Source: Curtobacterium sp. VKM Ac-1376
Lineage (GTDB): Bacteria; Actinomycetota; Actinomycetes; Actinomycetales; Microbacteriaceae
Direction: 5' to 3'
NCBI RefSeq assembly: GCF_015351025.1
Contig: NZ_JADKRV010000003.1
Location: forward strand, 310,001 to 374,000
DNA: 64,000 bases
Shown in pieces: positions 323 through 1,487 of the stretch. The translations under genes were made by a program, and so were the position numbers. Position 1 is the stretch's first letter. Each line of letters begins with the position of its first letter. The notes under the pieces are model-generated. The model was not told where the DNA came from, ran no database searches, and saw nothing but the letters and a program-made list of their open reading frames with translations.

Positions 323-1023
323 TTGACGAGCGTCGACTCGATCACGGAGGTGAAGAAGGTCAGGCCGTCCGTGCCGGAGGCCATGGCAGCGGGGGTGTCC
401 GGGCCGAAGCCCGCCTCGGTCGCGTGCTCGGGGTGCGGCATCAGGCCGACGACGTTGCCGCGCTCGTTCGAGACGCCCGCGATGTCGTCGATGGATCCGT
501 TCGGGTTCACGCCGACGTAACGGAACACGACCTGGCCGTTGTCCTCGATGCGCTTGATCTCGTCGGCGTCCGCCACGAAGCGGCCGTCGGCGTTCTTCAG
601 CGGGATCGTGATCTCCTGCTCCGCGGTGAACCCGGAGGTCCAGGCGGTCGAGGTGGTCTCGACGCGGAGCTTCTGGTCGCGGCGGATGAACTGCTGGTGC
701 GCATTGCGCGTGTGTGCGCCGGGCACCAGGCGGGCCTCGGCCAGCATCTGGAAGCCGTTGCAGATGCCGAGCACGGGCATGCCCTTGCCGGCGGCGTCGA
801 TGACCTCGGACATGATCGGCGCCTTCGCGGCGATCGCACCGGCACGCAGGTAGTCACCGTAGGAGAAGCCACCGGGGAGCACGATGGCGTCGACGCCCTG
901 CAGGTCGTGGTCGCCGTGCCAGAGGGCTACGGGGTCGGCGCCGGCGAGACGGACCGCGCGCTGGGCGTCGCGGTCGTCGAGCGAGCCCGGGAAGGTGATG
1001 ACGCCGATGCGCATCCGGGTCAC
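319..1023 (-). CDS. purQ: Phosphoribosylformylglycinamidine synthase subunit I (glutaminase)
   Basis: Class I glutamine amidotransferase subunit of FGAM synthase; it hydrolyses glutamine and passes ammonia to PurL. The 234-residue product has the usual length. The nucleophile cysteine is in GICNGFQ near residue 89 and the His/Glu partners are in PHPEH near residue 200. The N-terminal RIGVITFPGSLDDRDAQRAV is typical of PurQ. Start choice: the upstream ATG at 1023 overlaps the stop of the preceding purS-derived frame (ATGA), the usual purS-purQ arrangement; a second ATG lies three codons in. The gene looks complete, and overlaps purL downstream by 4 bases. Confidence 0.96.
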
Positions 1024-1487
1024 TGGCCTTCTACGGTCACGGACACGACGTCCTCGATGACCGCGTTGGAGAAGACGTCGGCGGCGATGTCGCGGACCTC
1101 GGCCAGCTTGGCGGGGCGCCCGGTCGGCACGCCCGCCTCGGCCATGATCCGCTTGGCGAAGGCCTTCGAGCCCTCCAGCTGCGCGGCCGCCTTGCCGGGG
1201 CCGAACACCGCGATGCCACGGGTGCGGAGCGGGTCGGCCACGCCGGCGATGAGTGGCGCTTCCGGGCCCACGACCACGAGCTCGATGTCGTTCTCGATCG
1301 CGTACTCGGCGACCAGTGCGCCGTTGGTGGGGTCGAGCGAGACGGTCTCGACGTCGGCGGCGATGCCCGCGTTGCCGGGCGCTGCCGTGATGACGTGACC
1401 GGCCTGCTCAGGGCCGGTCCGTTCAGCGAGGAGGGCCGTGATGATCGCGTGCTCGCGGGCACCGGAACCGAGGACGAGGATTCGCAC
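1020..1487 (-). pseudogene. Chimeric purD'-'purS open reading frame (apparent internal deletion)
   Basis: A 155-residue frame made of two unrelated purine genes. Residues 1 to about 125 match the N-terminus of PurD (glycinamide ribonucleotide synthetase): MRILVLGSGAREHAI, then VVGPEAPLIAGVADPLR and LEGSKAFAKRIMAEAGVPTG. The last 20-25 residues, IAADVFSNAVIEDVVSV, match the C-terminus of PurS, the small FGAM synthase subunit. Missing are the PurD ATP-grasp catalytic core (PurD is normally about 420 residues), most of PurS (normally about 80), and anything that lay between, often purC in related operons. The join is in frame and keeps the normal 4-base overlap with purQ. The product should have neither activity. 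It is either a true deletion, perhaps at short homology around the shared LAEVRD-like helix, or an assembly error. Confidence 0.85.

What the first reader, a model, noticed from the sequence alone, without database searches (positions are those of the whole stretch)
1020..1487. In-frame purD-purS chimera in the purine operon
The frame begins as PurD (GxGxREHAI, GPEAPLIAG, LEGSKAFAK) and ends as the PurS C-terminus (SNAVIEDVVSV), with the normal purS-purQ ATGA overlap kept. PurD catalytic residues and most of PurS are absent, as is whatever lay between (purC in many relatives). If real, steps 2 and 4 of purine synthesis are lost unless copies exist elsewhere, and the strain would need purines, while purF, purM, purQ and purL remain. 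The in-frame join is either chance or selection to keep translation into purQ.
Basis: partly seen in the sequence, partly recalled or inferred. Interest (0 to 1): 0.85.

Follow-up and report, generated by a model that had tools for sequence, protein, structure and literature searches.

The report
Deletion fusing purD to purS
This Curtobacterium genome seems to have lost a stretch of very roughly 13 to 23 thousand bases, which removed three purine-synthesis genes and left a stub made of the ends of two of them, so the strain should need purines from outside; it looks like a recent accident in one strain.

Summary
The chimera is in the sequence. ORF 1487..1020 (minus) encodes 155 aa: about 125 residues of PurD's N-terminus, then 30 of PurS's C-terminus, joined in frame at window 1114|1113 with no shared bases against four relatives. 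The window lies in a 3.77-Mb Curtobacterium draft listed as 99.98% complete. In 55 of 65 relatives purD and purS share a contig and strand, 6.4-28.2 kb apart, purD upstream in all 55. A 17-kb relative stretch matches this genome strongly only as two abutting flanks. PurS and the PurD C-domain occur in 65 of 66 genus genomes, missing only here; PurC is missing too, and no large PurL replaces PurS. purF, purQ, purL, purM and purH remain. Best reading: one deletion removed purC, most of purD and purS, and unrelated genes; Ku is present. Predicted: purine auxotroph. Remnant dN/dS is low, slightly above relatives, so the loss is probably recent. The in-frame join needs no selection. Reads were not available; assembly error is not excluded. 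An ordinary loss event, modest interest.

The parts
1020..1487 (-). Fused ORF, 155 aa, GTG start: about 125 residues of PurD joined in frame to the last 30 residues of PurS
1113..1114 (.). Deletion junction; no shared bases when compared with four relatives (G001, G005, G008, G018)
1114..1487 (-). purD remnant: N-terminal domain and the first residues after it; ATP-grasp and C-terminal domains missing
1020..1113 (-). purS remnant: about the last 30 codons; the gene has 82 codons in G007 and G008
319..1023 (-). purQ, over its curated cut-off, overlapping the fused ORF by GTGA
1..322 (-). Start of purL; the 800-aa ORF lies across the window edge (L030:7920-10322, minus) and scores over its curated cut-off
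5298..6755 (-). purF, over its curated cut-off
6802..7929 (+). purM, over its curated cut-off (start taken inside the longer mechanical ORF 6706-7929)

Best explanation
A single illegitimate deletion in this Curtobacterium strain joined codon 125 of purD to the 3' third of purS. It removed the rest of purD, all of purC, the unrelated genes that lie between purC and purS in relatives, and the first part of purS. The resulting 155-aa protein has a PurD N-domain without the ATP-grasp and C-terminal domains and a PurS tail, so it should have no catalytic function. purQ and purL now follow the purD start region in place of the region upstream of purS. The de novo purine pathway is cut at PurD, at FGAM synthase (no PurS) and at PurC, so the strain should need exogenous purines, probably taken up by permeases. 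Shown here: the junction in the assembly, the absence of the genes from the assembly, the arrangement in relatives. Inferred: that the assembly is right, end joining as the route, loss of function, auxotrophy, recent age.
For: Two abutting flank matches are the only strong ones when 17 kb of relative G008 is searched against the whole genome. In the six genomes that rank next after this one (G046, G008, G001, G005, G041, G047) the same two halves lie 13.3-23.4 kb apart. purD and purS lie on one contig and strand in 55 of 65 relatives, purD upstream in 55 of 55; in the other 10 they lie on different contigs. PurS and PurD C-domain in 65 of 66 genus genomes, absent only in this one. PurC absent, found in 14 of 14 control genomes; large PurL N-domain absent, though it rings in only 2 of 14 controls. 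The only GARS_A match, below the cut-off, lies in an ORF that I read as sucC from recalled sequence. Two permease-family matches. Ku present and no shared bases at the joint. An identical 155-aa protein is recorded on a contig of 8,365 bases, whereas a neighbouring window protein is recorded on the 381,763-base contig, which hints at a second assembly holding the same joint.
Against: No reads were available, and the genome is a 61-contig draft, so a misjoin with loss of an unassembled stretch is not strictly excluded. The ancestor of this exact strain is unknown, so the deletion size is only a range and a short shared stretch at the joint, hidden by substitutions, is possible. The 8,365-base record may come from the same reads. 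The remnants' low dN/dS would also fit a still-functional pathway if the sequence were in error.
Confidence: 0.85

Rival explanations
1. Assembly artefact: the two halves were misjoined and the stretch between them was dropped from the draft.
For: Draft assembly of 61 contigs; the remnants are nearly as conserved as the genes of relatives; every other genus genome examined has PurS and the PurD C-domain (65 of 66).
Against: No shared bases at the joint that would drive a misjoin; the missing stretch is not elsewhere in the assembly apart from weaker, paralogue-like matches and short repeats, although completeness is listed as 99.98%; the joint lies inside a 381,763-base contig; an identical protein is recorded on a contig of another length.
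Confidence: 0.1
2. Old, stable natural auxotrophy: the lineage lost the pathway long ago and lives on purines from plants or neighbours.
For: Permease-family matches for purine or uracil uptake are present. dN/dS of the purD remnant against seven relatives (0.037-0.094, mean about 0.074) is a little above that among those relatives (0.016-0.089, mean about 0.054), and its highest dN, 0.034, exceeds their highest, 0.026 (means taken by hand from its rows).
Against: The values are still far below 1, and purQ shows 0.095-0.104 (three pairs) against 0.000-0.134 among three relatives. purF, purQ, purL and purM score over their curated cut-offs and a whole PurH domain match is present. Low power: 119 to 124 codons for purD.
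Confidence: 0.12
3. The fused protein is a selected new gene, kept in frame because it does something or keeps purQ translated.
For: The joint is in frame and the stop-start overlap with purQ is kept.
Against: One in three joints is in frame by chance; the other phases would stay open to 1037 or past 901, so purQ would be reached anyway. Besides the window's own protein, the listed best 120 of 6,284 protein hits show no second such fusion by their coverages and domains, but only seven sequences were read, so this is weak.
Confidence: 0.03

Closest known systems
PurD, GAR synthetase (TIGR00877; PF02844, PF01071, PF02843)
   Same: About 125 residues are a PurD N-terminus, with a full match to the N domain
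   Different: ATP-grasp and C-terminal domains are missing
PurS, small subunit of FGAM synthase (PF02700, TIGR00302)
   Same: The last 30 residues match the end of PurS of relatives
   Different: About the first 53 of 82 residues are missing; no PF02700 match in the genome
Purine auxotrophs made by loss of pur genes (recalled general knowledge; some made in the laboratory appear in the listing, abstract starts only)
   Same: Loss of de novo pathway genes predicts a need for purines
   Different: Here one deletion would take three pathway genes at once and leave an in-frame stub; phenotype not tested

Membership tests
PurD (GAR synthetase) | N domain PF02844 | tested here: met
   E 2.5e-29, residues 1-105
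PurD (GAR synthetase) | ATP-grasp domain PF01071 and C domain PF02843 | tested here: not met
   No match in the fused protein; in the genome one sub-cut-off PF01071 match elsewhere and no PF02843
PurD (GAR synthetase) | Score over the curated TIGR00877 cut-off | tested here: not met
   119.9 bits against 288; the intact relative in L029 scores 433.7
PurS | PF02700 / TIGR00302 match | tested here: not met
   No match in the fused protein or, for PF02700, in the genome
Purine auxotroph by deletion | No intact copy of the lost genes elsewhere in the genome | tested here: met
   in the assembly as held
Purine auxotroph by deletion | No growth without purines, growth with them | not testable with these tools
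   needs culture

The most novel reading that the evidence does not exclude
A wild Curtobacterium lineage that, by one deletion, became dependent on purines from its plant host or neighbours while the rest of the pathway is still intact: a natural snapshot of the first step of losing a core pathway.
Probability: 0.25. Interest if true: 0.4.

Novelty: new member of a known kind. Interest (0 to 1): 0.25.

Why it matters
It predicts a purine requirement for a genome that stands for its species in the collection, and shows that a genome listed as 99.98% complete can lack three genes of a core pathway. If the loss is natural and not from the laboratory, it would be a fresh example of dependency arising by one event.

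Tried and rejected
Fused form as the normal form in relatives: rejected. Copies elsewhere in the genome: none found; the weak GARS_A match at C16 lies in an ORF I read as sucC from recalled sequence, not from a family scan. A large PurL that would make PurS dispensable: no N-domain match. Homology-driven deletion or misjoin: no shared bases found at the joint. Strong decay of the remnants: not seen, though dN/dS is slightly above that of relatives and power is low. Selection for the frame: not needed. Papers: (Curtobacterium, purine, auxotroph) gave none; some searches gave listings with abstract starts, in which I saw nothing on this case; no paper was opened, so absence from print is not claimed. 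The strain behind G000 could not be named: the named scan says that the window's own genome may be left out.

Full report
What is there. ORF 1487..1020 on the minus strand is open for 155 codons. Its first 105 residues match the whole Pfam N-domain of PurD and nothing else matches up to E 1. A blastn comparison splits the region cleanly: up to window 1114 it matches purD and its upstream region of relatives (L026 89.9%, L022 89.3%, L029 88.1%), and from window 1113 on it matches the 3' end of purS and purQ (L029 96.7%, L025 95.3%, L022 88.3%). Placed side by side with four relatives (G001, G005, G008, G018), the last base on the purD side and the first on the purS side differ from what the other partner has there, so no shared base is seen at the joint. 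The joint splits codon 125; the frame passes from PurD to PurS, and the stop overlaps a GTG start of purQ by GTGA. L025 (G001) and L029 (G005) have the same overlap.

What is normal. The window belongs to a 3,767,497-base draft genome of 61 contigs, listed as 99.98% complete. In five genus genomes laid out, or their pieces, the order is purD-purC, a block of unrelated genes, then purS-purQ-purL on the same strand. Of 65 other genus genomes, 55 have the PurD C-domain and PurS on one contig and strand, purD upstream in all 55, with 6.4 to 28.2 kb between them (median 17.3 kb); in 10 the two lie on different contigs (coordinates copied). Ten ORFs of the G005 block were scanned: an MFS transporter, a CtaG-like protein, an acyltransferase, a catalase, a glyoxalase-family protein, a short-chain dehydrogenase, an S26 signal peptidase, a second MFS-type transporter, a GAF-SpoIIE protein and purC. 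A few smaller or uncertain ORFs of the block were not scanned.

What is missing. With 17 kb of G008 as query against the whole genome, the two strong matches, to the two ends, abut at contig positions 311113 and 311114, which is window 1113 and 1114. Of the 88 rows, five others are longer or weaker inner matches elsewhere (68% in the catalase part, 79% and 72% in the S26 part, 65% and 78% in the GAF-SpoIIE part), which look like paralogues, and the other 81 are short dispersed repeats. PurS is found in 65 of 66 genus genomes and the PurD C-domain in 65 of 66; this genome is the only miss in both. PurC has no match here while 14 of 14 control genomes have one. A large PurL, which would not need PurS, has no N-domain match. 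In the six genomes ranked next the two halves are 13.3 to 23.4 kb apart (G008 13.3, G005 17.3, G046 17.5, G041 20.1, G001 20.4, G047 23.4), which gives a rough size for the deletion.

What remains. purQ, purL, purF and purM score over their curated cut-offs and PurH's domain is matched whole in a 581-codon open frame. Two matches to the xanthine/uracil permease family are present. The purD remnant has dN/dS of 0.037-0.094 against seven relatives (mean about 0.074), against 0.016-0.089 among those relatives (mean about 0.054); two of the seven values and the highest dN (0.034 against 0.026) lie a little above the range of the relatives. purQ has 0.095-0.104 in three pairs against 0.000-0.134 in three pairs of relatives (means by hand). 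So there is no strong sign of decay, with a slight excess in the purD remnant that 119 to 124 codons cannot settle.

Mechanism. A joint without shared bases fits end joining, and a Ku protein is encoded in the genome; other routes are not excluded. The frame is kept, but one joint in three is in frame, and in the other two phases translation would run on to 1037 or past 901, so purQ would be reached in any case. The predicted result, from established pathway knowledge, is loss of GAR synthetase, FGAM synthase activity and SAICAR synthetase, and so a need for purines. This was not tested.

Artefact or real. Without reads this cannot be closed. Against an artefact: no shared bases at the joint, the joint lies inside a 381,763-base contig, the lost stretch is absent from the assembly, and the identical protein is recorded on a contig of 8,365 bases while a neighbouring protein is recorded on the 381,763-base contig. 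The second record may be another assembly of the same reads, so it would support the joint in the reads but not in a second isolate; its origin is not shown.

Verdict. It is a loss event of a familiar type seen in one of 66 genus genomes, probably recent, with a clear testable phenotype.

Noticed in passing
window 26725-26850, with similar places elsewhere in the genome: Two adjacent palindromes of about 22 base pairs per arm; the stretch folds very stably (z -14.2), and 81 of the 88 rows are short matches of this kind, many of them the two strands of one place: a dispersed palindromic repeat of Curtobacterium, perhaps terminator-like.
   Followed up: partly
window 5229-5270: A similar palindrome lies between an ORF ending at 5213 and the 3' end of purF.
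   Followed up: no
proteins P0002 and P0034 (other records): Two proteins of 154 and 272 aa that begin like Curtobacterium PurD and then break off or leave the frame; sequencing errors or real frameshifts in other strains.
   Followed up: no
interval between purC and purS in relatives, e.g. L022, L023, L025, L027, L029: The gene content between purC and purS varies among Curtobacterium genomes (6.4 to 28.2 kb between the PurD and PurS domains in 55 genomes), which suggests a site of frequent gene gain and loss.
   Followed up: partly
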